DNA of 64,000 nucleotides from Rhodococcus sp. SMB37 (GTDB taxonomy: Bacteria; Actinomycetota; Actinomycetes; Mycobacteriales; Mycobacteriaceae). This document shows positions 10,288 to 63,300 of this stretch, in pieces. The position numbers were made by a program, and so were the translations under genes. The stretch covers positions 434,001-498,000 of the forward strand of contig NZ_SLVY01000002.1 of assembly GCF_004345605.1 (NCBI RefSeq). Reading direction: 5' to 3'. Each line of letters begins with the position of its first letter. Within the stretch, counting starts at the first letter, position 1. The notes under the pieces are model-generated. The model ran no database searches and was not told the origin of the DNA. It saw nothing but the letters and a program-made list of their open reading frames with translations.

Positions 10288-11646
10288 TCACAGCGGACCG
10301 GCCTCGGCCAGCACGACTCCGTCTCCGTCGTCCCTGGGCCTCCCTGCGTCGCCCGGGTCGGTGGTCGCTGCGCCCGCGGTCGCTCCCGAACGACGGTCGG
10401 CTCCGCGGCCCCCGGCGGGTGCCTGAGCGACTACCGGGCCGGACGGTGGCCCCGCATCCTCCGACGGCGCGCTCTCCGCGGGCAGTATCACGGGCGAATC
10501 GGTCCCCGAGGGCGCACGCGCCGAAGGTACGGGCTCCGAGGGTGTGGCCGCCGGAGGAGAAGCAGGGGCGGGCTCTCGCGAATCCGGCACGAACCCGGTC
10601 GGTGCCGCCGGGACCGGCGACTCCGGGACCGATTGAGGCGCCACCGGTTGAGGTGCGAGCGGTGGGGGTGCGACTTCTTCGACACTCGGCCGGAAGATCC
10701 CGGACGTGACGGCCTCTGTGAAGGCTGTCGCTCCCTCCGCCGCTGTCGTCGCCAGATCGGCCACCGCCCCGGTCAGATCCGCGACGGCCTCGACGAGATC
10801 TCGCCCGGCGCCGACGAGATCGGCCGTTGCTCGCAGGACGTCGTCCTGTCCGCCGGCGGTGTCGGTCGTGCCGCGGGAACCACTACCGGGCTGCCTCACC
10901 GACTCGGGTGCCGATGTCGGTGCGTCCAGCAGGTCGAACGCCCGGGCAACCGCGGCGAGGTGGTCGTCGACCGCGGCGTCGGCGATATCGCACACCTCGA
11001 TGAACCGATCGATTCGTGCCCTGATCGTCGGTGCGAACACCTCGTGCAGCCATCGCGCGCACCACGCGGCGACGCCGTCAGGACCTGCCGCGGGCGTGCC
11101 GGCTTCCGCGCACCACAGCGCCACCTGCTCGGCGGTGGGGCCGTCGGTGTCGCCGCGCGCGCCCGCAATGATCGCGTCGATGTCCTCGGGGGTCCGGCCG
11201 TCGACCGACATGTCCGCGAACCGTCCGATCGCAGACGACTTCTCGTTGACCGCTCGGGTAATTCCGTCGACGGCACCTGCACATGCCCGGGCCAGCGCAT
11301 GCACCGACTCGTACAGCATCGCACCGCGCTGCACGGCTCGATCCAGATCGTCGCGGGCAAGGTCACCGGCATCACCGCGCCACGCGGAACGCATTGCGCG
11401 TACCCCGTCCGTCTGTTCCTCGACTCGACCCTCCAGATCGGCCACGAGTCGGGTCAGCACCGCCGCGTCGTCCGCGAGTACCGACACGTCGAGCCCGATC
11501 TGCTCGTCGTAGCGTCCGCGCAAACCGTCGACGGTGACCCGCCCGGCAATGCCTACCCGGTGGGCACGCGGAAGGTATGCGGCGAAGAAGTCCAATCCGC
11601 GTGCACCGGCATCGAGCAGCTCGGCCAGACCTACGCGCGAACTCAC
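10288..11646 (-). CDS. WXG-motif helical protein with proline-rich C-terminus (candidate ESX substrate, EspB-like layout)
   Basis: I place the start at GTG 11646, which overlaps the upstream stop as GTGA and gives 452 residues. The first ~290 residues are predicted to be helical and carry a WRG turn (W89-G91 in MRSAWRGDAG), as in WXG100 and EspB/PPE-like bundles. The last ~150 residues are Pro/Ala/Ser-rich and probably disordered. There is no signal peptide or membrane segment. It matches Rv3439c of M. tuberculosis in size and position. The coupling to an EspC-like protein and the WXG turn suggest type VII export; this is inference. Confidence 0.72.
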   Translation of the reverse strand: MSSRVGLAELLDAGARGLDFFAAYLPRAHRVGIAGRVTVDGLRGRYDEQIGLDVSVLADDAAVLTRLVADLEGRVEEQTDGVRAMRSAWRGDAGDLARDDLDRAVQRGAMLYESVHALARACAGAVDGITRAVNEKSSAIGRFADMSVDGRTPEDIDAIIAGARGDTDGPTAEQVALWCAEAGTPAAGPDGVAAWCARWLHEVFAPTIRARIDRFIEVCDIADAAVDDHLAAVARAFDLLDAPTSAPESVRQPGSGSRGTTDTAGGQDDVLRATADLVGAGRDLVEAVADLTGAVADLATTAAEGATAFTEAVTSGIFRPSVEEVAPPPLAPQPVAPQSVPESPVPAAPTGFVPDSREPAPASPPAATPSEPVPSARAPSGTDSPVILPAESAPSEDAGPPSGPVVAQAPAGGRGADRRSGATAGAATTDPGDAGRPRDDGDGVVLAEAGPL

Positions 11647-11972
11647 CGAGCGAGTTCTGTCCGGGTGTCGCGCAGTGCGTCGAGTGTGGCCTGCTCCTGG
11701 TCGTGGTAACCGCGCGCTGCTTCTGCGGCTGCGTCGGAATACCGGTTGGTCGCCGCAGTCCACTCGCCGAGGGCACGCCGCAGGCGGCGGTACCCGTCTT
11801 CGACGGCGACCCCGCGCGATCGATACGTCTCCCCGGAGCACCCCGGGCCGAACTCCAGGGCGCCGAGGGCACGGCGGCATGCCCGGTCCGCGGCCACCGC
11901 GGAGCCGGTCACCGCGGACGCGACCGTCCGGACCGCTGCGCCGTCGAAATACAGTTCGGATCGTGGCTCCAC
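11643..11972 (-). CDS. Small EspC-like / WXG100-like helical protein with YxxxE motif
   Basis: The 109-residue protein has no signal peptide and reads as two amphipathic helices. Near its C-terminus it carries Y89-H-D-Q-E93, which fits the YxxxD/E type VII export signal, with a Trp at 71. The start is GTG 11972, preceded by GAAGGAG five bases upstream. It is translationally coupled to the larger WRG protein downstream and matches Rv3440c in size and position. Assignment to the EspC-like group is by motif and length only. Confidence 0.7.
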   Translation of the reverse strand: MEPRSELYFDGAAVRTVASAVTGSAVAADRACRRALGALEFGPGCSGETYRSRGVAVEDGYRRLRRALGEWTAATNRYSDAAAEAARGYHDQEQATLDALRDTRTELAR

Positions 11973-12081
11973 GTCCGCTCCTTCACGTGTCGGTCGACAC
12001 CGTCACAGAGTTGGACGCACCGCCGGACGATCCGGTTCCCCTTCGACGAAAAGAATCGATCCGCCCGTGGACGGCGATCAT

Positions 12082-14799: not shown

Positions 14800-15105
14800 T
14801 CACCCCCCGTATCGGGCGGCGTTCATCTTTTCGGTGATCCGCATCTCCTCATTACCGCGCCCCACAGTCCCACTGATCTCTGCCAGCACCTGGTTCAAAC
14901 CGAGTCGGGCCTGGGACCAGCGCCGCTGGGTGTCCGCGTATGCCTCATTGGCCTTGCCTTCCCAGCTGTCGTCCAGCCGCGCCACCTGAGCCTCGATGCG
15001 GTCGAGGATGTCGTTCATCTGCTTCTGGACCCCCGCGACTCCGGTATTGAGATTGTCAACGCCTTCGAAGTTCTGGAAGATCTCGCCATGTGGGCCGATC
15101 GCCAT
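14800..15105 (-). CDS. esxT: WXG100-family ESX protein, EsxT-like
   Basis: The 101-residue helical-hairpin protein has the WXG turn as W-E-G (LDDSWEGKANEAY), and its length is typical of Esx proteins. It probably forms a heterodimer with the product of the gene 47 bases upstream and is exported by the ESX-4 machine encoded next door. The C-terminus (NAARYGG) has no YxxxD/E motif. ATG 15105 follows AAGGAG. The name follows position relative to eccC and the mycobacterial Rv3444c. Confidence 0.88.
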   Translation of the reverse strand: MAIGPHGEIFQNFEGVDNLNTGVAGVQKQMNDILDRIEAQVARLDDSWEGKANEAYADTQRRWSQARLGLNQVLAEISGTVGRGNEEMRITEKMNAARYGG

Positions 15106-15152: not shown

Positions 15153-15494
15153 TCAGTAGTCACCGCTGAGCACGCTGCCGGTGTTCTTCAACTCCGCGGC
15201 CTGGTTGGCCGCAGTCTCCTCGTAGGACCGGCCGCCGGTGCGGACGGCCTCGGCGATCTCATCGAGCGCCTGGTTCAGTTGGTTCGCATTGTGGGTCCAG
15301 CGCTCCATGATGTTCGTGAACTCCATTGCACCGTCGCTCTTCCACACCGTCGACGTCTCCGACACGCGCGCACCGAGCACCCTTACTGCGCTGCCGAGTT
15401 CATCGCGTGACTCCTGCAGCTGGGTCGACGCCACTTCCATGGCGACGACATCAGCATTGAGCTGCTGTCCACCACCGGTTCCGCCCTCACTCAT
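15153..15494 (-). CDS. esxU: WXG100-family ESX protein, EsxU-like
   Basis: The 113-residue Esx partner has Gly-rich first residues, then two helices joined at STVWKSDGAMEF. The usual Gly of WXG is replaced by Ser (W-K-S). Near the C-terminus SYEETAANQ has a Tyr but no acid at +4, so the canonical YxxxD/E is absent. I chose ATG 15494, seven bases after GGAGGGG, over an in-frame start five codons earlier. It pairs with EsxT. Confidence 0.85.
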   Translation of the reverse strand: MSEGGTGGGQQLNADVVAMEVASTQLQESRDELGSAVRVLGARVSETSTVWKSDGAMEFTNIMERWTHNANQLNQALDEIAEAVRTGGRSYEETAANQAAELKNTGSVLSGDY

Positions 15495-15627
15495 CGTGCA
15501 CCCCTCCATTGTTCGGCGTCACGGTTCACTCGGCCCCCGTTGGTCCGACCCGTTTCGCCCCTACATCTGATTCGACGCAGCCCGCACCGGATCGGTTCCG
15601 CTCGATCCGAACTACGTCGGAGTCTTC

Positions 15628-17085
15628 TCACACCGGCTCCACAGTGTGGACAGCCTGCTCGCATTCACTTCTGATTCCGGTCCATTCGTCGGCGAGGAAC
15701 TGGCAGCCGATGGAAACCTGCAGGCCCGGCATGACGACGACCGACCACCTCACCGTGGAAAACTCGTCGGGCACCTCGACGTACGAGATGACCGGGCGGT
15801 CACCGAAGCGCGTGTCCGACTCCACATCTCGGATGACATCGCTGCGCGCCGTCGCACGGGCCGCAAGACTCCGCGCTACCGCGTCCGAATCCATCCCGTC
15901 CGCGAGGTGTGAGTACACGATCACGATCCTGCGGTCGGGGCCCGAATCCGGCAACAGCTCGGCCCTGCCCGGATCCTGCACACCGGAATCGCGTATGCGC
16001 CAGTACGACGGGAGGTCCAGGCGTACGACGCCGAGATCGATCGTGGCGAAGGCGGATGCACCCGGATCCCGCGTGGCCGTGACGGAGGCATCGTCGATCG
16101 GTTCGGCCCGGACGGTCTCCGCACTCGCTGCACCACCCCTGTCCGCGACGAACTCGCGGGCGCCCTCATCAGCCGAGATGAACACCATCGCGACCACCAC
16201 GACGATCACGATCAGAGCTCCCGCAACCATCCACCCGAAGCGGGGCGCGCGCGACGGTTCGGGCATGGGTGCACGGACATCCTGCAGCCACTGCGCGGTC
16301 GACGACCCGACCTCGCTCCGAGAGGCCGCGACCCGCCCCGTGCCCGCCTCGAGTACTTCTGTGATCGGCGCAAGCATTTCCGAGGCTGCCACCGGGACAA
16401 CCCGAATCCCCCGCCCGATTCGCTCACCCAGCCGTCCACACAAGTCGACACCCGCGGGCTCACCCGGAATCCCCGTCACCAGCAGCACATCCGGATCGAC
16501 CCGCCCGGCGACCGATTCGATCAGAGACCTGAGGCGGGTCGCGCCGTCGTCGGAATCCACCTCGTCGGCCGGCAGCCCCGGGTCCCTCGCAACACGGTCG
16601 ATGACGGCCCGTCCGCCGCGAATCGGTTCGAGAGAGGTCGCTGTGACCCCGTCCGGCATGACTTCGAGAGTCACACACCGCTCATCGGCACCCACGTCGG
16701 CTGCGTCGCACGCGGCGACCGCAGCCGGAACCAGCTCCGCATTGCGCGCGACATTCCGCGCGGCGGTGTACAGCGCGTCACGCCGCCGCGCACTCCACTT
16801 CGTCGGATGAACCGCGACGACAGTTCCGATGTTCGGGGGTGCACCGATCACGGCAGCGGCGTAACGCACCAGCCCTGTCAGCAACTCGGCGGAGTCGTCC
16901 CCTCGATCCTCGGCGAGCACGTCGGTCGTCTCGAGCGACGCCGCAGCATCTCCGAAGACCCATCCGCCGCTCAGCCTCGCGGCGACGGCAGGCACGTGCC
17001 GGATACGCTCGGCACGGCGTACACACACGCTGGTCGCTCCGGCGTGGAGTCCGAGCACATCCGCGCTCACGACGGTTGCAGCCAT
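15628..17085 (-). CDS. Type VII secretion-associated actin-like membrane protein (Rv3446c-like)
   Basis: The 485-residue protein has an N-terminal ~280-residue domain with an actin/Hsp70-like pattern (VSADVLGLHAGATSVCV at the start, then VVAVHPTKWSARRR). One membrane helix follows at about residues 284-304, then a ~180-residue extracytoplasmic domain. This is the layout of the ESX-4-associated family represented by Rv3446c. The start overlaps the eccC stop by 19 bases, so the two are made together. Its role is unknown; ATP binding by the N-terminal domain is plausible, but key residues cannot be confirmed by eye. Confidence 0.82.
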   Translation of the reverse strand: MAATVVSADVLGLHAGATSVCVRRAERIRHVPAVAARLSGGWVFGDAAASLETTDVLAEDRGDDSAELLTGLVRYAAAVIGAPPNIGTVVAVHPTKWSARRRDALYTAARNVARNAELVPAAVAACDAADVGADERCVTLEVMPDGVTATSLEPIRGGRAVIDRVARDPGLPADEVDSDDGATRLRSLIESVAGRVDPDVLLVTGIPGEPAGVDLCGRLGERIGRGIRVVPVAASEMLAPITEVLEAGTGRVAASRSEVGSSTAQWLQDVRAPMPEPSRAPRFGWMVAGALIVIVVVVAMVFISADEGAREFVADRGGAASAETVRAEPIDDASVTATRDPGASAFATIDLGVVRLDLPSYWRIRDSGVQDPGRAELLPDSGPDRRIVIVYSHLADGMDSDAVARSLAARATARSDVIRDVESDTRFGDRPVISYVEVPDEFSTVRWSVVVMPGLQVSIGCQFLADEWTGIRSECEQAVHTVEPV

Positions 17086-20000
17086 GCCGTCTGGATGAGT
17101 TCGTTACCGTTGCGTCGCACGAGAATCCCGCGACCGGGCGGCATCGGACCGGGTCTTGCCGTTCCCACGAGCGCGCCTTCGTCGCGGCTCCCGCTCATGA
17201 CCAGACCCGGAGTCGACAGCTCACGCAACCGTGCGATGACCGGTTCGTACAGGGCGCGGCTCGCACCGCCTGCCCGCCGCGCGATGATCAGATGCAGACC
17301 GATGTCCTTCGCCTGCGGCAGATACTCGAGCAGCGGCGTCAGCGGATTCTGACCGGATGACGCGACCAGGTCGTAGTCGTCGATGATGACGAACACCTCG
17401 GGGCCGGTCCACCACGAACGGTCGCGCAATTGCTGTTGCGTGGTGTCGGCACCCGGAAGTCGACGTTCGAAGACCCCCGCGAGCTCGGTGGCCATCGCGG
17501 ACAACACGGATGTGCCCGGCGCGTATCCGCCGAGATGGTCGCCTTCGACGACCCCGAGCATGGTCCGGCGATAGTCACCCATGATGATCCGTGCCTGCGC
17601 ACCGGTGTTCGACTCCATGAGGCTCCGGCAGATCCCGCGGAGCAGCGCAGTCTTTCCGCAACCGGAGTCGCCGAACACAAGCAGGTGGGGGCTGTCGGTG
17701 AAGTCGAGGGTCACCGGTGCGAGCTCCGCTTCGTCGATTCCGATCGGCACGCGCAGCCGCTGCGCGACCGGCGCGCTGATCGGGACCGGCCATCCGTCGG
17801 GAAGCGCAGAGAGGACGGCCGCACGGTCGATTTCCTCGGGAAGCATCCGGACCTCAGGCGCGTGGCCACCCGGAGTTGCAGCAGCGATCGCAGCAACAGC
17901 CGTGGTCACGCCCTCGGCGAGATCGTCGACGCCGGAACTGCCGTCGGCCCGCGGCAGTGCGGCCAGTACGTGAAGTCCGTCCCTGTCGATACCTCGGCCG
18001 GGTCTGCCCTCGGGCACCAGCGCTGCTTTCTTGCGCCCGTATTCCGAGTCGGCCGGGTCGCCGAGACGGAGTTCGAGGCGGGTTCCGAGGTGGTCGCGTA
18101 GCGCTGGGCGAACATCCCACCACCGCGGTGCGCTGATCATGACGTGAATTCCGTAGGACAACCCGCGTGACGCCAGGACGCCCACGCTCTGTTCGAGTGG
18201 TTCGAAGTCCTCCCGGATACTGGGCCAGCCGTCGATCACGAGGAAGACATCGCCGAACGGGTCGCCGGAGACATGCTGCGCTCCGTCTGCGCGTAAGCGT
18301 CGCAGTGTCGCCATCGATTCGATGCCCCATTCGCCGAACTGCTGTTCTCGCCTGCGCAGCAGGCCCATGAGCTCCGCGACGGTGCGGCGGACCCGGTCGC
18401 CTGCGAGACGATTCGCCACGGAGCCGACGTGTGGAAGCCCTACGAGCCCGGCGAGCGTGCCGCCACCGAAATCGAGGCAATAGAACTGCACCTGCTCGGC
18501 TGTGTGGGTGAGCGCCATCGACATGATCAGGGTGCGCAGCAATGTCGATTTACCCGACTGCGGACCGCCGACCACGATGGTGTTGCCTGCGGCCCCCGAC
18601 AGATCGACAACCAGGGGGTCTCGACGCTGTTCGAAGGGCCGGTCGACGATCCCGATCGCTGTCCGCAGGGTCGACTGATGCAGAAGATCTCCGGTGAGAA
18701 GCGAGTGCGACAGCACCATGTCGAGGCTCGGGGACTCCTCGAGGGGCGGCAGCCACACCTCGTGTGCGGGGGTGCCGTGTCCGCGGACCCGACCGACCAC
18801 GACGTCGAGCACACTGCGGCCGCCGTCGGACGGTGCCGGGGCGGTATCGGGGGTCGGTTCGCCGACCGACGGCACCGGTAGGGGAACACCACGATCGACA
18901 GGTACATCTCGTGCCGTGAACAAGCGCGGACCCGGAGTCCCCGCTGCTGCCGTCCGAATGCGGCGCGCCGGACGGCCGGGCTCGTACGGTCCCGACACGT
19001 AGGCCGCGTCGAAGCGCACGATCTCGGCCGAATCACACTTGAGGTAACCGGCGCCCGGCGTGGGCGGCAGACTGTAGGCGTCCGGAACACCGAGAACGCT
19101 CCGGGATTCATTCGCGGAAAAGGTCTTCAGACCGATCCGGTACGACAGGTGACTGTCGAGGCCACGCAGTTTTCCTTCGTCGAGCCGCTGGCTCGCCAAC
19201 AGCAGGTGTATGTGCAGCGACCTACCGAGACGACCGATCGCCGCAAAGAGATCGGCGAAGTCGGGCTGCTGGGAGAGCAGCTCGGAGAACTCGTCGACGA
19301 CGATGAACAATGCCGGCAACGGTGCAAGCGGAGCACCTGCGGTCCGCGCCTTCTCGTAGTCACCGACATTTGCGAAGTTGCCGGCCGCTCGCAGCAGCTC
19401 CTGTCGGCGGGTCATCTCACCCTCGAGTGCGTCCTTCATCCGCTCGACCATCGCGAGTTCGTCCGCGAGGTTGGTGATGACCGCTGCGACATGGGGACTC
19501 CGATCGAGCCCGAGGAAGGTCGCGCCGCCTTTGAAGTCGACGAGCACGAGATTGAGGGCGTCGGGTGAGTGCGTGGCGACGAGACCGAGCACAAGGGTCC
19601 GCAGGAACTCGCTCTTTCCCGAACCCGTGGCACCGATGCACAGGCCGTGCGGACCCATTCCGTTCTCCGCGGATTCCTTCAGGTCGATCTCGACCGGAGC
19701 GCCGTCTGCACCGACCCCGATCGGCACCCGCAGCCTGTCGCGACCGGATCGCGGCGCCCAGGCCTGGAGCGGATCGAGTCGCGCGATGTCGCCGAGTCCG
19801 AGCAGGTCCTGCCAGGTCTCGATGCTGCCCGAGTCGGCACCGTCGTCCGTGGCGAGCTGAGTTGCAGCCCGGTATGGGGCGAGTCGTCGTGCCAGGGCCT
19901 GCGATTGCGGGGCACTGATCCCGTCGGCGTCCGCAAAGGTCTCCACCGCGCTGCCCGTTTTCGCGCCGAGGCGGCCGTTCGCCGCGACGAGCTGCAACCC

Positions 20001-21068
20001 ACGAAGTGCCGCGAGCCGCGGGGCGAACGCGGAGAGGTCGAGCAGGGTCACGGAGTCGAGCCCGTCGTCGAGGAGCCCGGACCCGGATCCGGAGACCCCA
20101 CCGTCGATGACGATCAGCAGTTGCGGAACTCCGTCGACGGCAGGGGTATTGCGGACGAACCGTCCGCGTGCGGACAGGTGTACGCCGAGGACCGTCTCGA
20201 GTTCGAGCACGGAACCGAAGACCATGCGAACGCTGCCCGCTCCGTCACGCGTCTCCGGGTGCTGAGCGTGCGGCAGCCACTTGACCCACTCCCACTCCGC
20301 AGCAGTGTCCGGTCCGCAGACCACCGCGACCTGGAGTACGTCGGGTGCGTGGAAGGTGCACAGCTGCCCGAGCATTGCTCGGGCCAGTTGCTGCGATGCC
20401 TCGCGGTCGCCGCCGATACCGACCGACGCGAATCCCCGAAGCGATACGGCCGTCGGTAGTGCCGGCACCACCGAGTGCGCGCGCACGAAGCGGCGCAACG
20501 ACACCGCGGCAACGGGTTCGAGATCCTCGACCGGACCGGTTTCGGGAGCGATCAGCTTGGTGGCGAGTCGCTGTCCGCCCCGGCCCACCCGCACGTGGCA
20601 GAAGTCTGCGTCGGTCGGGCGGCGTTCCCACATCCGGACGGTCCCGACCAGAGTCCACAACAGCGCCGGATCCGGGTGGGTCCACTCGAGGGCCCGCCGT
20701 TGCGCCGAGCCGGTCTCCGCGACGTCCCTGCGCAGAGTGTCGAGATAGCGCAGGTAGTCCTTGCGGTCCTCATTCGTCTCTGCGGTTTTCGCGCCGCCTC
20801 CGCGACCGCTGTTGGCAAGCATGCCGATCATCGACACCATCATCATCAGCGGAAAGACCAGGGCCATGGGGCTTCGTGCCATACCGGAACCGAACATGAG
20901 CGCAACCATGCCGATCATCGCCGCAACCATCACCAGCGGCAGCAGCTTCATGAGCAGATTGCCCGGTGTGGCTCTCGGAATATCGGGCGGCGCCTGCAGA
21001 CTCACCTCACCACCGGGTGCGCGCGGCGCATCCCGACGCGCTCGGCGCGCGAATCGTACAGTGCTCAA
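17067..21068 (-). CDS. eccC: Type VII secretion motor ATPase EccC
   Basis: EccC is the FtsK/SpoIIIE-type motor that recognises and drives ESX substrates. The homologous region starts STVRFARRARR, so I place the start at TTG 21068 behind a G-rich stretch, giving 1333 residues. Two membrane helices lie near the N-terminus. Three ATPase domains follow, with Walker A motifs GATGSGKSEFL (about residue 476), GGPQSGKSTLL (about 830) and GDSGCGKTALL (about 1129), and Walker B strands IVVDEFSELL, LVIDGWPS and VIIDDYDLV. All three P-loops are intact. It is divergent from eccD across a 200-base promoter region. Confidence 0.95.
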   Translation of the reverse strand: MSTVRFARRARRDAPRAPGGEVSLQAPPDIPRATPGNLLMKLLPLVMVAAMIGMVALMFGSGMARSPMALVFPLMMMVSMIGMLANSGRGGGAKTAETNEDRKDYLRYLDTLRRDVAETGSAQRRALEWTHPDPALLWTLVGTVRMWERRPTDADFCHVRVGRGGQRLATKLIAPETGPVEDLEPVAAVSLRRFVRAHSVVPALPTAVSLRGFASVGIGGDREASQQLARAMLGQLCTFHAPDVLQVAVVCGPDTAAEWEWVKWLPHAQHPETRDGAGSVRMVFGSVLELETVLGVHLSARGRFVRNTPAVDGVPQLLIVIDGGVSGSGSGLLDDGLDSVTLLDLSAFAPRLAALRGLQLVAANGRLGAKTGSAVETFADADGISAPQSQALARRLAPYRAATQLATDDGADSGSIETWQDLLGLGDIARLDPLQAWAPRSGRDRLRVPIGVGADGAPVEIDLKESAENGMGPHGLCIGATGSGKSEFLRTLVLGLVATHSPDALNLVLVDFKGGATFLGLDRSPHVAAVITNLADELAMVERMKDALEGEMTRRQELLRAAGNFANVGDYEKARTAGAPLAPLPALFIVVDEFSELLSQQPDFADLFAAIGRLGRSLHIHLLLASQRLDEGKLRGLDSHLSYRIGLKTFSANESRSVLGVPDAYSLPPTPGAGYLKCDSAEIVRFDAAYVSGPYEPGRPARRIRTAAAGTPGPRLFTARDVPVDRGVPLPVPSVGEPTPDTAPAPSDGGRSVLDVVVGRVRGHGTPAHEVWLPPLEESPSLDMVLSHSLLTGDLLHQSTLRTAIGIVDRPFEQRRDPLVVDLSGAAGNTIVVGGPQSGKSTLLRTLIMSMALTHTAEQVQFYCLDFGGGTLAGLVGLPHVGSVANRLAGDRVRRTVAELMGLLRRREQQFGEWGIESMATLRRLRADGAQHVSGDPFGDVFLVIDGWPSIREDFEPLEQSVGVLASRGLSYGIHVMISAPRWWDVRPALRDHLGTRLELRLGDPADSEYGRKKAALVPEGRPGRGIDRDGLHVLAALPRADGSSGVDDLAEGVTTAVAAIAAATPGGHAPEVRMLPEEIDRAAVLSALPDGWPVPISAPVAQRLRVPIGIDEAELAPVTLDFTDSPHLLVFGDSGCGKTALLRGICRSLMESNTGAQARIIMGDYRRTMLGVVEGDHLGGYAPGTSVLSAMATELAGVFERRLPGADTTQQQLRDRSWWTGPEVFVIIDDYDLVASSGQNPLTPLLEYLPQAKDIGLHLIIARRAGGASRALYEPVIARLRELSTPGLVMSGSRDEGALVGTARPGPMPPGRGILVRRNGNELIQTAWLQPS

Positions 21069-21268
21069 GTTCCCCAACCCCCGTACACACCGGCCGCCTA
21101 CAGCGGCCTTCCCCCCGGTCGTGGAAGAGTAGCGCACCGTCGCGACAGTTACATCCGCGACGATGCTGTCGGCGCTTCCGCGACGATGTCGTAAGGTCTG
21201 CGTCGTCGAAAGGTCCGCGCCACCTTCGGTCGCCGGGCCGGCGCGCGAACTACGGGGGGAACAATTCG

Positions 21269-22732
21269 ATGACAGCTGCAGCGACGAGCCCGAACGTACC
21301 CGGTGCGGTAGCAGCACCGGAACTGTGCAGGATCACAGTGCTCACCAAACACTCCGAGGTCGATCTGGCACTGCCACTGGGCGTTCCGGTTGCCCTGCTG
21401 CTCGCGGGAATCGTCGATCTCGTGGCTGCTCATCGCCCCGACAACGAATTCGACGTCACTCCGGAACGGGTCGAGCCGGAAGCATGGAGCCTGGCCCGGA
21501 TCGGCCGAGCTCCACTCGCGGGCGCCGCGAGCCTCGACGAGCTCGGAATCCGCGACGGTGAGGTGCTGATCCTCGAGGAGTCGTCGTCACCGCCGTCGCC
21601 ACCCTTGTTCGACGACGTGATGTACAACGTGGCGGTCGCAGGTCGCGACCGGTTACGGCGCTGGTCCGATCGCACTGCGGCGATGGTCGGTGCTGTGGTC
21701 GCAGCGGCTGCGATCACGACCGGGTGCGGGTCGTTGCTTCTGCTGCCGTCTTCCGGTGGCGAGCGGGTGTTCGCGGGGATCGCGACTGTGGTGCTGGCGC
21801 TACTGCTCGTGACCGCGGCCGCCGTCATTGCACGGGTCTATCTCGACCGGCCGATCGGACTGCTGCTCGCGGTCTGCTCCGTCCCCGTTTCCTTCGTCAC
21901 CGGGATGCTTCTGGTTCCCGGCGACTTCGGTGCGCCGCACCTGCTGTTGGCGACCGTCCTGACCGGCGCGGTCGGTGTGGTCACGGTGGGTGTCACGACG
22001 GTCGGACTCGCCACGTTCACCGCGATCCCGACGATCTCGGCGGTCGCGACGATCGCCCTGGTCGTCGGCACCGCCACCGACGTGCAGTTTCAGGCGCTCG
22101 GGGCCGGCGTCGTCGTGACCTCGCTGCTGTTGGCGACCTTCGCCGCCCGTGCCGCCACGCTCCTCGCCCGCCTTCCTCTTCCTCCGGTTCCCGCGCCCGG
22201 AACCTCCCTGGACCCTGTGGTTCCCGACCCGGACGACGAGAATCCGCCGCCCACGTTCGAGGAACTCGAGGCGAAGACGGCGCGTGCCCGAGCTCATCTG
22301 ACCGGGTGGGTGTACGCGGTGGTCGTGCTCGCGACGGCGGGTGCATGGTGCGCGGCGTGGCCGGTCCCGGATACGGCTGTCTCCTGGCCCGGTGTCGCGT
22401 TGGCGGCGGCGACGGGAATCGTCCTGATGTTCCGAGGTCGCACGTACATCGGGGCCGAGCAGGCAGCTCCGATGATCGTCGGTGGTGCAGTGCTCGTCCT
22501 GGGTCTTGTCGTCGGCGCCGCGCTCTTCGGAACCGTTGCTCCGCAGGCACTCTTCGGCATCACTGTCGTACTGTTCGTCGGTGCCCTGATTCTCGGGGTC
22601 GTGGTGCCCCAGCGCACCTTCACACCTGTGCAACGGCGGATCAGCGAACTCACCGAGTACGCCGTCATTGCCACGATCGTGCCGCTGGCATGCTGGGTAG
22701 CCGGCCTCTATTCCGCGGTCCGTGGGTTGTGA
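21269..22732 (+). CDS. eccD: Type VII secretion membrane protein EccD
   Basis: EccD forms the membrane vestibule of the ESX core complex. The 487-residue protein has a ubiquitin-like N-terminal domain (about residues 17-105; CRITVLTKHSEVDLALPLG) followed by about eleven hydrophobic segments from residue ~130 to the end. ATG 21269 follows GGGGGGA. Its TGA overlaps the mycP GTG (GTGA). Confidence 0.94.
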   Translation: MTAAATSPNVPGAVAAPELCRITVLTKHSEVDLALPLGVPVALLLAGIVDLVAAHRPDNEFDVTPERVEPEAWSLARIGRAPLAGAASLDELGIRDGEVLILEESSSPPSPPLFDDVMYNVAVAGRDRLRRWSDRTAAMVGAVVAAAAITTGCGSLLLLPSSGGERVFAGIATVVLALLLVTAAAVIARVYLDRPIGLLLAVCSVPVSFVTGMLLVPGDFGAPHLLLATVLTGAVGVVTVGVTTVGLATFTAIPTISAVATIALVVGTATDVQFQALGAGVVVTSLLLATFAARAATLLARLPLPPVPAPGTSLDPVVPDPDDENPPPTFEELEAKTARARAHLTGWVYAVVVLATAGAWCAAWPVPDTAVSWPGVALAAATGIVLMFRGRTYIGAEQAAPMIVGGAVLVLGLVVGAALFGTVAPQALFGITVVLFVGALILGVVVPQRTFTPVQRRISELTEYAVIATIVPLACWVAGLYSAVRGL

Positions 22733-57356: not shown

Positions 57357-60300
57357 TCACTGTGGATCAAGATCGACACGATCACTGTCCAGAGCAGGCA
57401 CGATCACGTCGAGCGCCGTCGGTTCCATCATCTCTCCGTGCTCCCCCGGTACGAACCGGGTACGAATGCCTCCCGTGACGAACGGCACCCACAGGTCCGC
57501 GGCGTCCGCTTCGGTCGGGTGTTCCTCCACCGCACTGAAGAACTCCATGTCACCGGTGAACACTCCGGGTTCGTGACGGTTGATCAGGTCCGGTGACGTC
57601 ATCGCCGCAGCGAAGATGCGTTGGGTCCTCTCGATATCGAGTTCGATCAGTTCCGCCGGAACCGCACGCACGAGCGCTTCGGCGGCCTCACGAGGAAGCT
57701 GCCGGTCGAGTGCCCCGGGATCCACCTCGACGCCGAAGGTGCGCAGGTTCTCCGAGATCTCAGACTCGAAACGGTCGGTGTCGATCCGCGGGACACTGTC
57801 GATCAGCGCGAGTTTCTCCACACTCAGACCGCGGGACTGGAGTTCGACCGCCACCGCATGCGCGAGCACACCGCCCAGGGACCAGCCGAGCAATCGGTAC
57901 GGTCCGTGCGGCACGGTTGCGACGATCTCGTCGGCGTACCTGCGCGCGAGATCGTCCAGTGACGCTCCGGCGAAATCGGGTTCGGTCAACACCGGCGTCT
58001 GAACCCCGTACACGGCGCCAGGTCCGTCCAGGCGCGCCGCGAGCGGCGCGTAGGTCCAGGCGAGCCCGATCATCGGGTGCAGGCAGAACACCGATTCCGC
58101 GGGGTCCCCGGCGCGCAGCGGCAGGATCACGGAAAGGGCCGCATCCGCTTCCGAGACGGCGACGCCCTCGACTTCCGCGCCCGCTTCGACATCGACGCCG
58201 AGCCGGGCCGCGAGGTCCTTCACGACGGGCGACTCGAGCAGCCAGGGGACACGCACAGCCACGCCGATCTCGTCCCGCAGTCTCGCAACCACTTGGGTCG
58301 CGACGAGGGAATTGCCCCCGAGGTCGAAGAAGTCATCGTCCAAGCCGATCCGGTCGACGTCGAGCACCTCCGCATACACGCGTGCGACCAGCGCTTCGAG
58401 CCCCGTGCGGGGAGCACGGTGCGGCCGCATCGACGTTGCGGGTTCAGGGAGGGCCGCGCGGTCGAGCTTGCCGACCGGAGTCAGTGGCATGGAGTCGAGG
58501 ACGACAACCACGTCGGGAACCATGTGACGTGGCAACGAGCGCGCTGCCGTGCGGAGGAGTTCCGACGTCTCGACGACCCGACCGGGCGCCGCGGTCACGT
58601 ACGAGACGAGCCGCACGACGCCTGCCCCGGATGTCCGAGCGATCGTGACCGAGAAATCCACCGCATCGTCATGACGAAGCACCGCATCGATCTCGTCGAG
58701 TTCGATTCGGAATCCACGGATCTTGACCTGGAAATCCGACCGACCCACGTAGACGATGTCGCCGGTGTCGGTCCAACGGGCCAGATCCCCGGTCCGATAG
58801 AGGCGGGCGCCGGATCCGAACGGGTCGGCAACGAAGCGGTCGGATGTCAATCCCGCTCTCCCGTGGTACCCGCGCGCCAGTTGCACACCCGACAGGTAGA
58901 GCTCACCTGCAACGCCGACCGGGACGGGCCGCAAGCGCACGTCGAGCACGACGGCACCGACACCGCGGATCGGTCCGCCGATCGTCACGTCGTCACCAGG
59001 AGCCAACGGCGCGCTGATATTGGTCATGATCGTGGTTTCCGTGGGGCCGTAACCGTTGTGGAACGCGCGGCCGGAAGCCCAGCGCGACACCAGTTCGGGT
59101 GGCACCGCCTCTCCACCTGCCACGAGGACACGAAGTTCATCGAGTCCCTCTGGGTCCAGGGAGGAGATCGCGGCCGGTGTGATGAATGCGTGCGTCACGC
59201 GCTCGGCCCGGATGAAATCCGCGAGGTCACGCCCGCCGTAGATGGTCGGCGGAGCAATCACGAGCGTCGCGCCGGCCGCGAAGGCCATCAACAACTCGAG
59301 CACTGACGCGTCGAAGCTCGGCGATGCGAAGTGCAACACCCTGGCGTCGACGCCCAATGCATACCGATCACGCTGCTCGGCAGCAAAATTCGCCAACCCG
59401 GAATGAGTGACGACGACACCCTTGGGGAGCCCCGTCGAGCCTGACGTGTAGATGATGTAAGCGGTATTGCCGGCGTGCACACGACGTACGCGCTCGCCCG
59501 CCGCGACCGGGCCGCCCGGGCTCGTCTCCATCCGGGCCACCGTGTCCTCCGACGTCAGGTCGATCCATTCGACGTCGCCGGGCAACCCGACGAGATGCTG
59601 TGTCACGGTAAGGCCGAGCGCCGCTCCCGAGTCGGACACCATGTGTGCAACACGATCGGCCGGGTAGTTCGGATCGACCGGTACGTACGCGGCACCGGTC
59701 TTCGCCACCGCCCACACTGCGGCGACCGACTCGATCGAGCGTGTGAGACCGAGGGCCACAACATCTTCTGTACCGATGCCACGTCCGATCAGCAATCTCG
59801 CCAATCGCGACGAGAACGTGTCGAGCTCGGCGTACGTCCACTCGCGCCCGTCGTGGACCACAGCGACGCCGTCAGGGTTGCCCTCGGCGGCCGCCACGAG
59901 GAGATCACCGAGCGGAACCGGAGATTCGGCCGGTCCACCCTCGCGGTGGACCAGGTCCTCGAATTCGTCGGAGTCGAGATACGGCAGGGCGTCCACCGGC
60001 ACCGCGGGGTCGGCAAGGATGCCGTCGATGATCCGCAGGTACCGGGCGGCAAGCGTGGTCACGGTGTCGGCATCGAGAATGTCGCTGCGGTACTTGAATC
60101 CGAGCGTGACGGTGTCTTCCGCGGTGACGGCGACGGTCAGCGGATAGTGCGTGGCGTCGCGGGTGTTGACGCCGGCGACGATCAGTCCGTCGACCGATCC
60201 CGCCTCTGCGATGCCGCTACGGTCCACCGGATACGACTCGTACACGAGCAGGGTGTCGAAGAGCGCTCCGAGACCCGTCCGCTGCTGGATCTCGGCGAGG

Positions 60301-63300
60301 CCCACATGATGGTGGTCGAGAAGCGACGCCTGATCGACCTGGATGCGCTGGAGCAGTTCCTCGGTGGTTGCCGAGTCGCCGAGTCGCACGCGGACGGGCA
60401 ACGTGTTGATGAACAGTCCGACCATCGATTCGACGCCCGGAAGGTCCGCGGGCCGGCCCGACACGGTAGTACCGAACACGACGTCGTCACGACCGGTCGT
60501 GCGGGCGATGAGTGTCGCCCACGCACCCTGCAGGACGGTGTTGACCGTGACGCCGAGCCTCGCTGCGACCTCTCCGAGGGTGTCACTGCGGTCGCGGCCT
60601 AGATCGATGTGGTGCTCGGCCGAAGTGGCTCCGGCGTCGCCGGCCTCGGAGCCGACCAGCAGTGTCGGTTCGTCGACCCCCCCGAGTGCGTGGACCCACG
60701 CGTCGACCGATTCGCGGTGGTCGCGGCGCCCCAGCCACTCGAGATAGCTGCGGTACGACGGCACCCGACCGAGCAACGCAGCATCACCCGACGTCGCGTA
60801 CAGCACCAACAGGTCCTTCATCAGCAACGGCATCGACCAGCCGTCGAGGAGGATGTGGTGGCTCGTGACCGCGAGCGTCCAGGATTCGGATCCCGTCCGC
60901 ACCATTGTGAAGCGGATCAGCGGCGGCGCTGCCAGATCGAAGGCCACGTCCTGGTCGGCGCGCAACACCGCGTCGAGTTCGACAGTGTCGGCCGCCGGGT
61001 TCCCCGGCCCGGTGAGGTCGAGTTCCCGCCACGGCAGCACGACGTCGTCGACGACAACCTGGACCGGCTCACCGGATTCACCCGAGACGAAGGTAGTCCG
61101 CAGGTTGGGATGCCGGTCGAGAAGTGCGGCGGCAGCGCTTCGTAGACGTGCCGGGTCGACGAGTCCGGCGAGGTGGATCAGTACCTGAGTGCTGTAGACG
61201 TCGGACTGTCCTTCGGCGAGCAACGCGTGGTAAAGCAATCCGGACTGCAACGGTGCGAGCGGCCAGACGTCGGACACGTTGGGGTACTCCGCTTCCCAGG
61301 CGTCGATGTCGCGCTGGGTGACCTCGACCAAGGGGAGATCGGTCGGTGTCCGCCCGCCTGCGTCGGGGCGTGCCGCGTGAGTGGCGAGCGCTTCGAGTGC
61401 ACGCACCCACCATTGTCCGAGTTCCTCGACGTCGTCGCGGTCGAGCAGACCGGCGGGGAATCCGAGGTTCGCGCCGAGCTCCCCTCCGATGACCACCGCG
61501 TTGATGTCCACCGAGGCGAGCGCGGGAGCGTCGCTGTCGTCGCGACCGGACAGGTCACCGAGGTCGCCGGCGGGTAGCCAGCCCAATTCTGCGGCCTGAC
61601 CCTGGGACACCTCGCCGGCGTCGAGACGTCCGAGGTAGTTGAAGCTGATCTGACCGGACGGCAGATGTGCGAGTTGCCCAGCGGTGTCGGAGTTGCAGTA
61701 CCGGAGCAGTCCGTAGCCGAGTCCCTTGTCGGGGATGGCCCGCAGGTGTTCCTTGACGACCTTGAGTGCAGTGCCGGCGGCTGCTCCGCCCTCGATGGCG
61801 TCGTCGAGGTCGATGCCGGACAGGTCGAGCCGCACAGGGAACATCGCGGTGAACCAGCCCACGGTGCGTGACAGGTCGGCCCCGGGGACAAGGTCTTCCT
61901 CGCGTCCGTGGCCCTCGAGTCCGATCAGCGCGGACAGTTCATCCGTGCCACGATCGCGACGCCACCCGGCGAGCGCCAATGCAAGGCCAGTGAGCAACAC
62001 GTCGTTGACGCTGCCGTGGTAGAGCTCGGGAACTGTGGTGAGCAGTGTGTCGGTGACCTCGGCTGCGACCCGGACCTGGACCTTCTCGACCGTCGACGCA
62101 AGATCGACTGCGGGGTCGAAGGCACGCGTACCCAGAAGGGGGTCGGGTCCGGCCAGGATCGACGTCCACATCGGCAACTCTGCCGTGCGATCGCCGGCAC
62201 TGCGAACGAGGGCATCAGCCCAGGTCCGGAACGACGTTCCGACCGGCTGCAGCGCCGCGGGCTGTCCGTGATCGATCTGCGCCCAGGCAGTCACGAAGTC
62301 GGGCACCAGGATTCGCCACGACACTCCGTCGACCACGAGGTGGTGGGCGACCACGGCCATCCGCCCGGTGCGGTCTGCGCCCGGTGCGGGATCGAGCCAG
62401 ACGAACTGCAGGACGGTGCCGCGCGACGGATCGAGCCGCGCCTCGGCGCTGTCGAGTTCGCGGGCCGCGATACTGCGCCACCGGTCGTCGTCCGCATCGG
62501 CAGGCACCTCCACGTGGGAGACGAGAGAATCGACGTCGACCGAGCCCGGTGCGGTCGTGGCCAGCACCCATTCTCCGGTGCCGCTCCGGCGCAGGGACGC
62601 CCGCAGCATATCGTGCCGGTCGATAACGGCACGAAGGGTCGCGACCACGTCCGGACGTGTGATGCCTTCGGGCAGTTCGAGCGCGATGGTCTGGGTGTAG
62701 CGGTCGAAGCTGCCCGCGCGCTCGACCATGTAACGCACGATCGGGGTGAGCGGGATGTCACCGACTCCTCCCCCCTCGAGTTCGACGAGCAAGGGTGCGG
62801 TCCCGGTACCGATCCGCGCGACCTCGGCGAGTCCGGCCACGGTGCGCTGCTCGAAGACCTCCCGGGGCGTGAACACGATCCCGAGCGCTTTGGCGCGCGA
62901 CACCAGCTGGATCGATACGATGCTGTCGCCCCCGAGCGCGAAGAACGAGTCGTCGACGCCGACCTCGTCGATGCCGAGCACGTCGGCGAAGACCTCGGCG
63001 ATCGCTACCTCCGTCGGCGTCGCGGGTGCACGGAATTCTTTGTCTCCCACGAACACCGGAGAAGGAAGCGCCTTCTTGTCGAGCTTTCCGTTCGGAGTGA
63101 GAGGCAGAGCATCGAGGATCACGATCGCGTCGGGGACCATGTATCCGGTCAGGAACTGCCCGACCTCGTCGAGCACCTCGGCGGGCACAACGTTGGTACC
63201 TGCGCGTGGGACGACGTATCCGACGAGCTTGTCGCCGGTGTGCGCGTCGGTCCGCACCACGGCGACTGCATGCGCGACACCCTCGACAGAGGTCAGCGCG

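What the first reader, a model, noticed from the sequence alone, without database searches (positions are those of the whole stretch)
10288..11972. Coupled EspC-like and WRG protein pair: candidate ESX-4 substrates outside the ESX locus
Two genes between glmS and glmM overlap by GTGA. The small one (109 aa) has a C-terminal Y-H-D-Q-E, which fits the YxxxD/E type VII export motif. The large one (452 aa) has a WRG turn in a helical N-terminal half and a proline-rich tail, the layout of EspB/PPE-like substrates. Neither has a Sec or Tat signal. They match Rv3440c and Rv3439c of M. tuberculosis in position. A small YxxxE protein beside a larger WXG partner is how ESX substrates usually pair. They are about 3 kb from an ESX-4 locus whose own Esx proteins lack a clear YxxxD/E signal, so this pair could supply it.
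Basis: partly seen in the sequence, partly recalled or inferred. Interest (0 to 1): 0.8.

Follow-up and report, generated by a model that had tools for sequence, protein, structure and literature searches.

The report
ESX-4-linked protein pair beside glmM
Two neighbouring bacterial genes of unknown role carry the hallmarks of a protein pair sent out through a secretion machine, and they sit behind the same kind of promoter as that machine's known cargo.

Summary
A 109-aa gene (SMALL) and a 452-aa gene (LARGE), overlapping by GTGA, lie between glmM and glmS in an unnamed Rhodococcus-like genome, 2.8 kb from an ESX-4-type locus. Of 172 loci scanned, window included, 151 gave a pair. LARGE keeps the WxG tryptophan in 149 of 151; SMALL keeps the acid of YxxxD/E in 146 but its tyrosine in only 109. 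The window's own proteins stay below Pfam cut-offs.

New evidence: an ECF-type promoter, GGAAC-N16-18-CGTC, precedes SMALL in 138 of 151 loci (resampled control 51 of 3020) and the Esx pair in 37 of 45; rplM, rpsI and glmS have none. In another family the pair lies beside the Esx genes inside an ESX locus. Of six informative EccC-less genomes, three have lost or broken the pair and three keep it. LARGE ends in EAGx[LM]-COOH in 98 of 148. Its M. tuberculosis counterpart is reported to bind the PDZ domain of Rip1.

Best reading: an ESX-4 substrate pair in a SigM-type regulon. Secretion, the dimer and the sigma factor are untested.

The parts
11643..11972 (-). SMALL: 109-aa EspC-like helical protein (GTG start)
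   Evidence: PF10824 matches 8 of 20 aligned members at E up to 0.1, not this protein itself
11694..11708 (-). YHDQE (SMALL residues 89-93), YxxxD/E export-type motif
   Evidence: D/E in 146 of 151, Y in 109 of 151
10288..11646 (-). LARGE: 452-aa WxG protein (GTG start)
   Evidence: WXG100 E 0.033, below cut-off; 11 of 22 aligned members match at E up to 0.1, best 1.3e-5
11643..11646 (-). GTGA stop/start overlap of SMALL and LARGE
11374..11382 (-). WRG (LARGE residues 89-91)
   Evidence: W 149 of 151, G 135 of 151
10312..10920 (-). variable Pro/Ala-rich arm of LARGE (about residues 243-445)
10291..10311 (-). C-terminal tag LAEAGPL-COOH of LARGE (residues 446-452)
   Evidence: EAGx[LM] end in 98 of 148 complete LARGE proteins; the 13 true-stop EAGPL hits in 18 genomes are at this gene
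12014..12039 (-). ECF-type promoter GGAAC-N17-CGTC, ending 41 bases before SMALL
15574..15599 (-). matching ECF-type promoter upstream of the ESX-4 Esx pair
15153..15509 (-). Esx protein (esx2), first of the Esx pair
   Evidence: Pfam WXG100 8e-13; start as listed
14800..15105 (-). Esx protein (esx1), second of the pair
   Evidence: Pfam WXG100 3.3e-13
17067..21317 (-). EccC open frame of the ESX-4-type locus (true start lies inside the frame)
   Evidence: named from its translation; own genome matches TIGR03924 at 1.7e-292 (place not listed)

Best explanation
SMALL and LARGE are a type VII secretion substrate pair of the ESX-4 system, encoded apart from the ESX locus but in its regulon. An ECF sigma factor, most likely the SigM counterpart, transcribes the Esx pair and SMALL-LARGE from matching promoters. 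SMALL (EspC-like, YxxxD/E) and the WxG domain of LARGE would form a helical heterodimer whose composite signal is read by EccC. LARGE also has a second conserved region, a long variable Pro/Ala-rich arm and a conserved C-terminal peptide that should dock on a partner. The best candidate is the extracytoplasmic PDZ domain of the site-2 protease Rip1, which cleaves anti-SigM; the alternative is EccC itself. Shown here: anatomy, conservation, promoter, linkage, partial loss with ESX. Inferred: sigma identity, dimer, secretion, docking.
For: WxG and D/E conservation. Promoter GGAAC-N16-18-CGTC within 300 nt of SMALL in 138 of 151 against 51 of 3020 resampled; the spacer is 17 in 132 of 138 although 16-18 was allowed. 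Same promoter before the first Esx gene in 37 of 45 and, by BLAST placing, esx2 16 of 21. Controls: rplM 0 of 71, rpsI 0 of 71, glmS 0 of 52, mycP 0 of 32, glmM 1 of 71, hydrolase 1 of 60. Order glmM-SMALL-LARGE-glmS near ESX-4 in many genera of two families, and esx2-esx1-SMALL-LARGE within an ESX locus in both f2 genomes looked at. Genus g24: 25 of 25 EccC-positive genomes match LARGE (24 at E 1e-20 or better, one incomplete genome at 7e-6), 0 of 3 EccC-negative (one is 74% complete); g10: 12 of 13 and 0 of 1 beyond a generic 7.6e-4. The pair is a frame-disrupted remnant in G270, gone with an insertion in G291, reduced to SMALL in G157. Under the same promoter pattern the own genome has an EspC-like (PF10824 1.7e-7) + NlpC/P60 (9.8e-17) pair and an EspC-like (0.012) + EspA-like TPR_23 (2.3e-31) pair. 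SigM activates esx-4 genes (PMC10117145, PMC8092274, passages).
Against: No secretion data and no structure. Three EccC-less genomes keep the pair (G387 by profile; G357 and G426 by SMALL profile and position, with ESX remnants). G144 (g10) has EccC but no LARGE match. Y of YxxxD/E is missing in 42 of 151. The window's SMALL has no Pfam or NCBIfam hit at E up to 1 and LARGE is below both cut-offs. 13 of 151 loci lack the promoter, and the promoter is also seen upstream of some machine genes (eccC 10 of 53, eccD 3 of 37, eccB 2 of 8). Covariation did not recover even contacts within each protein. The sigma factor was not sought in this genome.
Confidence: 0.72

Rival explanations
1. The pair is first of all a regulator of the Rip1/SigM pathway (Ppr2-type) and not an ESX cargo: LARGE binds the Rip1 PDZ domain through its tail and modulates anti-SigM cleavage, SMALL stabilises it, and the WxG/YxxxD fold is inherited from a secreted ancestor.
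For: Rv3439c is reported as Ppr2, found with the Rip1 PDZ domain in a two-hybrid screen (PMC6963305, passage); the pair is kept in three EccC-less genomes; the own genome has one M50 protease, with a PDZ domain.
Against: WxG and the acid of YxxxD/E are among the most constrained positions of the two proteins; the pair sits beside Esx genes within an ESX locus in family f2 and decays with ESX in g24 and g10; without export it would not reach an extracytoplasmic PDZ domain.
Confidence: 0.17
2. A cytoplasmic chaperone or docking factor for the ESX-4 Esx pair rather than a cargo, with the C-terminal tag binding EccC.
For: Shared promoter and linkage with the Esx pair.
Against: Known T7SS chaperones (EspG) do not have this anatomy (recalled); the long variable Pro-rich arm resembles that of exposed substrates.
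Confidence: 0.07
3. A cell-wall precursor factor working with GlmM and GlmS.
For: Position between glmM and glmS in most loci that hold the pair.
Against: Own ECF-type promoter not shared by glmM (1 of 71) or glmS (0 of 52); in family f2 the pair is beside Esx genes and no glmM lies in the fetched 18.5-18.9 kb.
Confidence: 0.04

Closest known systems
Rv3440c / Rv3439c (Ppr2) of M. tuberculosis
   Different: In what I could read, known only as hypotheticals and as a Rip1-PDZ two-hybrid partner; the C-terminal tag in group g29 is LP[QR][AV]Gx rather than LAEAGPL.
EspC / T7SS_ESX_EspC (PF10824)
   Same: Size, layout and C-terminal YxxxD/E; 8 of 20 aligned SMALL members match at E up to 0.1.
   Different: The window protein itself has no match.
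WXG100 / EsxB (CFP-10)
   Same: The LARGE profile matches EsxB chains of the PDB at about 1e-5 over profile positions 48-123.
   Different: About 45 residues more at the N-terminus, a second conserved region, a long Pro/Ala-rich arm and a C-terminal tag.
EspB and PE/PPE pairs
   Same: Two-protein layout with WxG and YxxxD/E and a Pro-rich tail (their layout is recalled).
   Different: No sequence membership: PPE 1 of 22 at 0.061; EspB_fam 1 of 20 SMALL members at 0.0055.
EsxU/EsxT, the ESX-4 substrates
   Same: Same promoter type and neighbourhood as their counterparts here.
   Different: [quoted passage not shown] abscessus (PMC9401124, passages).

Membership tests
Type VII secretion substrate pair | WxG turn in one partner | tested here: met
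   W89 149 of 151, G91 135 of 151
Type VII secretion substrate pair | YxxxD/E near the C-terminus of one partner | tested here: met
   YHDQE in the window; in the family D/E 146, Y 109, both 104 of 151
Type VII secretion substrate pair | No Sec or Tat signal | tested here: inconclusive
   Low hydropathy in both proteins; no signal-peptide predictor available
Type VII secretion substrate pair | Heterodimeric four-helix bundle | not testable with these tools
   Structure machine busy in ten tries; covariation inconclusive
Type VII secretion substrate pair | EccC-dependent secretion | not testable with these tools
   Bench work needed
EspC, PF10824 | Match above the Pfam cut-off | tested here: not met
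   No hit for the window protein; 8 of 20 members match at E up to 0.1, best 1.3e-7
WXG100, PF06013 | Match above the Pfam cut-off | tested here: not met
   14.9 bits against 27.3; 11 of 22 members match at E up to 0.1, best 1.3e-5
PPE, PF00823 | PPE domain match | tested here: not met
   1 of 22 members at 0.061
SigM-type ECF regulon of ESX-4 | Promoter shared with ESX-4 Esx genes | tested here: met
   SMALL 138 of 151; first Esx gene 37 of 45; controls
SigM-type ECF regulon of ESX-4 | The sigma factor is SigM | not tested
   SigM control of esx-4 is taken from passages; no sigma gene was searched for
Ppr2, Rip1 PDZ partner | Binding of the Rip1 PDZ domain | not testable with these tools
   Two-hybrid report for Rv3439c; one PDZ-bearing M50 protease found in this genome

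The most novel reading that the evidence does not exclude
A secretion-coupled feedback loop on a sigma factor through type VII secretion. SigM drives ESX-4 cargo and SMALL-LARGE; ESX-4 exports the pair; outside the membrane the free C-terminus of LARGE (EAGPL-COOH or its clade variant) docks on the extracytoplasmic PDZ domain of the site-2 protease Rip1 and gates cleavage of anti-SigM. The cell would read whether ESX-4 is working by the arrival of its own cargo, much as export of FlgM reports on the flagellar machine (recalled comparison).
Probability: 0.25. Interest if true: 0.88.

Novelty: new variant of a known kind. Interest (0 to 1): 0.68.

Why it matters
ESX-4 is placed at the root of the ESX systems (PMC9514802, passage), yet few of its substrates are known, and a study of M. 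abscessus says that its data support the existence of additional ones besides EsxU/EsxT (PMC9401124, passage). This pair is a widespread candidate with conserved order and a shared promoter, and the promoter gives a way to list others: in this genome the same pattern marks two more EspC-like pairs, one with a cell-wall hydrolase domain. If the C-terminal tag binds Rip1, secretion and SigM activation become one testable circuit, and an orphan two-hybrid hit (Ppr2) gains a role.

Tried and rejected
Heterodimer by AlphaFold: structure prediction answered 'machine is busy'; no model, so no fold search. Covariation (154 paired rows, 328 columns, about 90-117 effective sequences): the top couplings look like clade markers and hairpin contacts are not recovered; the inter-protein top scores exceed 14 within-clade permutations, but fine phylogeny can do that, so inconclusive.

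PDB profile of SMALL: best hits are viral spike and designed coiled-coil or helical chains, taken as noise; one Esx chain (3ogi_B) at 0.057. Plasmid search with LARGE: no match. EAGPL-stop elsewhere (18 genomes, 17 hits): the 13 hits with a true stop lie at this gene by coordinates; four read TGG.

Profile A1 was too insensitive as a presence test in small-genome genera: several scored absent show diverged pair-like genes, often with the promoter, at the glmM locus. So 324 of 401 mixes generic WXG hits with real ones and misses some.

Glm-linked function: disfavoured by promoter and f2 context.

A correction of my own: one search gave 154 pairs, but one search showed that in L213, L229 and L234 it had caught the Esx pair instead; counts here are the corrected ones (151 pairs). 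still hold those three rows.

Rows dropped before counts: one search left out L115, L116, L129 (duplicate genome), the ESX-less L203-L205, and four genomes seen only in the first round (L037, L042, L043, L044). Of 172 scanned loci 21 gave no pair by its criteria; among them the pair is seen by profile or 85 for L131, L223, L225, L229 and L234. Counts are per locus; four genomes give two loci each. The profiles used were built from 64 and 67 sequences of the same set. Of the 11 family genomes with no EccC or only an FtsK-like match, four under 90% complete (G243, G273, G280, G317) were not examined at the glmM locus.

Full report
Observation. SMALL is 11643..11972 (-), 109 aa; LARGE is 10288..11646 (-), 452 aa; they share GTGA. 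SMALL has YHDQE at residues 89-93 and LARGE has WRG at 89-91. LARGE has a Pro/Ala-rich tail (35% P+A over residues 256-452). Neither has a strong hydrophobic stretch. glmS, glmM, rpsI, rplM and an ESX-4-type locus flank them; I named these from their translations and order, and Pfam confirms the two Esx proteins. Genus labels g1, g24 and so on are the tool's; any genus name I attach to them is a guess from genome size.

Family status of the window proteins alone is weak: no Pfam or NCBIfam hit at E up to 1 for SMALL; WXG100 at E 0.033 and TIGR03930 at 0.018 for LARGE, both below cut-off. Relatives help. Of 20 aligned SMALL members (window included) 8 match EspC at E up to 0.1, best 1.3e-7; of 22 LARGE members 11 match WXG100, best 1.3e-5; the LARGE profile finds EsxB chains in the PDB at about 1e-5 over positions 48-123.

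Conservation. I scanned 172 loci, window included; 151 gave a pair after I removed three places where the profiles had caught the Esx pair instead. LARGE W89 is W in 149 of 151 and G91 is G in 135; these two were the most conserved columns of the domain (on the uncorrected 154). SMALL residue 93 is D or E in 146, residue 89 is Y in 109, both in 104. So the acid is near-invariant and the tyrosine depends on the clade.

Promoter. In the 64-kb window only two sites fit GGAAC-N17-CGTC: 12014-12039 (-), ending 41 bases before SMALL, and 15574-15599 (-), before the Esx pair. With spacers 15-18 there are 11 sites against 6.6 expected, and 7 of 100 shuffles reach 11, so in the window alone the pattern is not significant by number; its weight comes from place and recurrence. 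Over 40 fetched regions the pattern (N16-18) lies upstream of SMALL in 32 of 36 and of esx2 in 11 of 15, and not of glmM (0 of 35), glmS (0 of 23), rplM (0 of 35), mycP (0 of 20), the Rv3446c-like gene (0 of 20) or esx1, the second Esx gene (0 of 16); hydrolase 1 of 32. In the larger set: SMALL 138 of 151 against 51 of 3020 Markov resamples; first Esx gene 37 of 45. In one search: rplM 0 of 71, rpsI 0 of 71, glmM 1 of 71, glmS 0 of 52, hydrolase 1 of 60, mycP 0 of 32, Rv3446c-like 0 of 25, nnr 1 of 31, alr 0 of 16, esx1 0 of 37, esx2 16 of 21; eccC 10 of 53, eccD 3 of 37, eccB 2 of 8, eccE 0 of 1. The spacer is 17 in 132 of 138 and the base after GGAAC is C in 133 of 138; the last was not imposed, the first only to 16-18. 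The own genome has 39 sites of GGAACC-N15/16-GCGTC against 6 for the reversed pattern.

What else this pattern marks in the own genome: an EspC-like protein (PF10824, 1.7e-7) followed by a protein with NlpC/P60 (9.8e-17) in L173; an EspC-like protein (0.012, below cut-off) followed by a 787-aa protein with an EspA-like TPR_23 domain (2.3e-31) in L167; a DUF6802 protein in L164; YbaB-like proteins in L173 (2.6e-6 and, below cut-off, 0.0054). The L176 protein has no Pfam hit. Many of the 39 sites have no such neighbour and may be chance. What I could read says that SigM activates esx-4 genes (PMC10117145 and PMC8092274, passages) and that in M. smegmatis contact leads through SigM to ESX-4, a cell-wall hydrolase and a nuclease (PMC9514802, passages, citing Clark 2018, not held). 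That the window's promoter is a SigM promoter is my inference.

Linkage. glmM-SMALL-LARGE-glmS near ESX-4-type genes is found in many genera of the window's family and, with glmM in the fetched stretch, in 17 of 19 loci of family f14. In family f2 both genomes looked at (L131, L223) have esx2-esx1-SMALL-LARGE in one direction within an ESX locus, no glmM in the fetched stretch and no separate promoter right before SMALL. That is the arrangement expected if the pair belongs to ESX.

Co-occurrence. EccC (TIGR03924) scores above its cut-off in 383 of 401 family genomes; 11 of the other 18 have only an FtsK-like match (E above 1e-30) or none. In genus g24 25 of 25 EccC-positive genomes match LARGE and 0 of 3 EccC-negative ones do; in g10 12 of 13 and 0 of 1. 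The seven EccC-less genomes at least 90% complete, at the glmM locus: G270 keeps only a frame-disrupted C-terminal part of LARGE and no SMALL; G291 has an insertion there (its protein looks like TnpB, recalled, no profile run) with the promoter left; G157 keeps SMALL (motif now YPRQN) but not LARGE; G050 has none, but neither has G020 of the same genus, which has EccC; G387 has the pair and the promoter by profile; G357 and G426 have ESX remnants and two pair-like frames (SMALL by profile at 2.6e-5 and 1.1e-5, the large one by position only). So loss is frequent but not obligatory, and this counts partly against strict dependence.

C-terminal tag. LARGE tails vary freely, yet the last residues do not: 98 of 148 complete proteins end EAGx[L/M]. 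Within those 98 the positions not fixed by that choice are also low: 1.0, 1.6, 0.6, 1.1 and 1.1 bits at positions 2, 6, 7, 9 and 10 from the end, against 3.0-3.5 bits in the arm, with 3.0 at position 8. Other clades have their own ends: LALAGxx, LP[QR][AV]Gx, FAVSGS, TG[EG]W, SGTW or AGQW in genomes that I take for Corynebacterium; the f14 ends share no obvious motif. In 18 genomes EAGPL with a true stop occurs 13 times, each at this gene. A conserved free C-terminus after a long flexible arm is typical of a docking peptide. Rv3439c, the recalled counterpart, is listed as Ppr2, found with the PDZ domain of Rip1 in a two-hybrid screen (PMC6963305, passage); Rip1 acts on the anti-sigma factors of SigD, K, L and M (PMC10449499, passages); PDZ domains of DegS and E. 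coli RseP are described as extracellular (PMC10202637, passages). The own genome has one M50 protease match, and it bears a PDZ domain. I recall that Ppr1 bridges Rip1 to anti-SigM; a passage says only that Ppr1 bridges Rip1 to one of its substrates (PMC9042235). That the conserved tag is the PDZ ligand is inference; binding to EccC is the main alternative.

Mechanism, step by step. Shown here: the two-gene unit, its signatures, a promoter shared with ESX-4 Esx genes, linkage, partial loss with ESX, a conserved tag. Reported by others: SigM control of esx-4, and a Rip1 PDZ interaction of the counterpart. Inferred: SigM transcribes the unit; SMALL and LARGE form one heterodimer; EccC exports it; the tag docks on Rip1 and feeds back on SigM.

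Prior art. Ten searches of the held library gave six papers naming Rv3439c or Rv3440c; I saw passages of two and only the listing of the other four. Nothing I saw links the pair to ESX-4 or to this promoter. Most subscription papers are not held, and the three SigM studies I asked for were not, so expression tables there may already list these genes.

Verdict. Export itself is untested.

Noticed in passing
L173 (G000:C2:370000-383000), promoter at locus base about 5231: EspC-like 119-aa protein with YERTE followed by a protein with an NlpC/P60 domain under the same ECF-type promoter pattern; a second such promoter nearby precedes YbaB-like genes.
   Followed up: partly
L167 (G000:C18:126000-136000): EspC-like 113-aa protein followed by a 787-aa protein with WQG near its start and an EspA-like TPR_23 domain, same promoter pattern.
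   Followed up: partly
L164 (G000:C13:121000-131000): A DUF6802 protein lies downstream of the same promoter pattern.
   Followed up: partly
L137 and L157 (G000:C1:673045 and C8:57794): Two 291-aa frames that look like AbiEi-type regulators (from memory, no profile run) start 9 bases after a promoter of this pattern.
   Followed up: no
L127/L128 and three other g23 genomes; L228, L230-L232, L240: Some g23 genomes carry two SMALL-LARGE copies, and some f14 loci show repeated SMALL/LARGE-like genes near glmM, with long divergent tails.
   Followed up: partly
L210-L213, downstream of glmM: Small genomes that I take for Corynebacterium have a highly diverged pair-like unit whose large protein ends in TGGW, TGEW, SGTW or AGQW, another conserved-looking C-terminal tag.
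   Followed up: partly
window 57357..63881 (-): A 2174-aa open frame was not examined.
   Followed up: no
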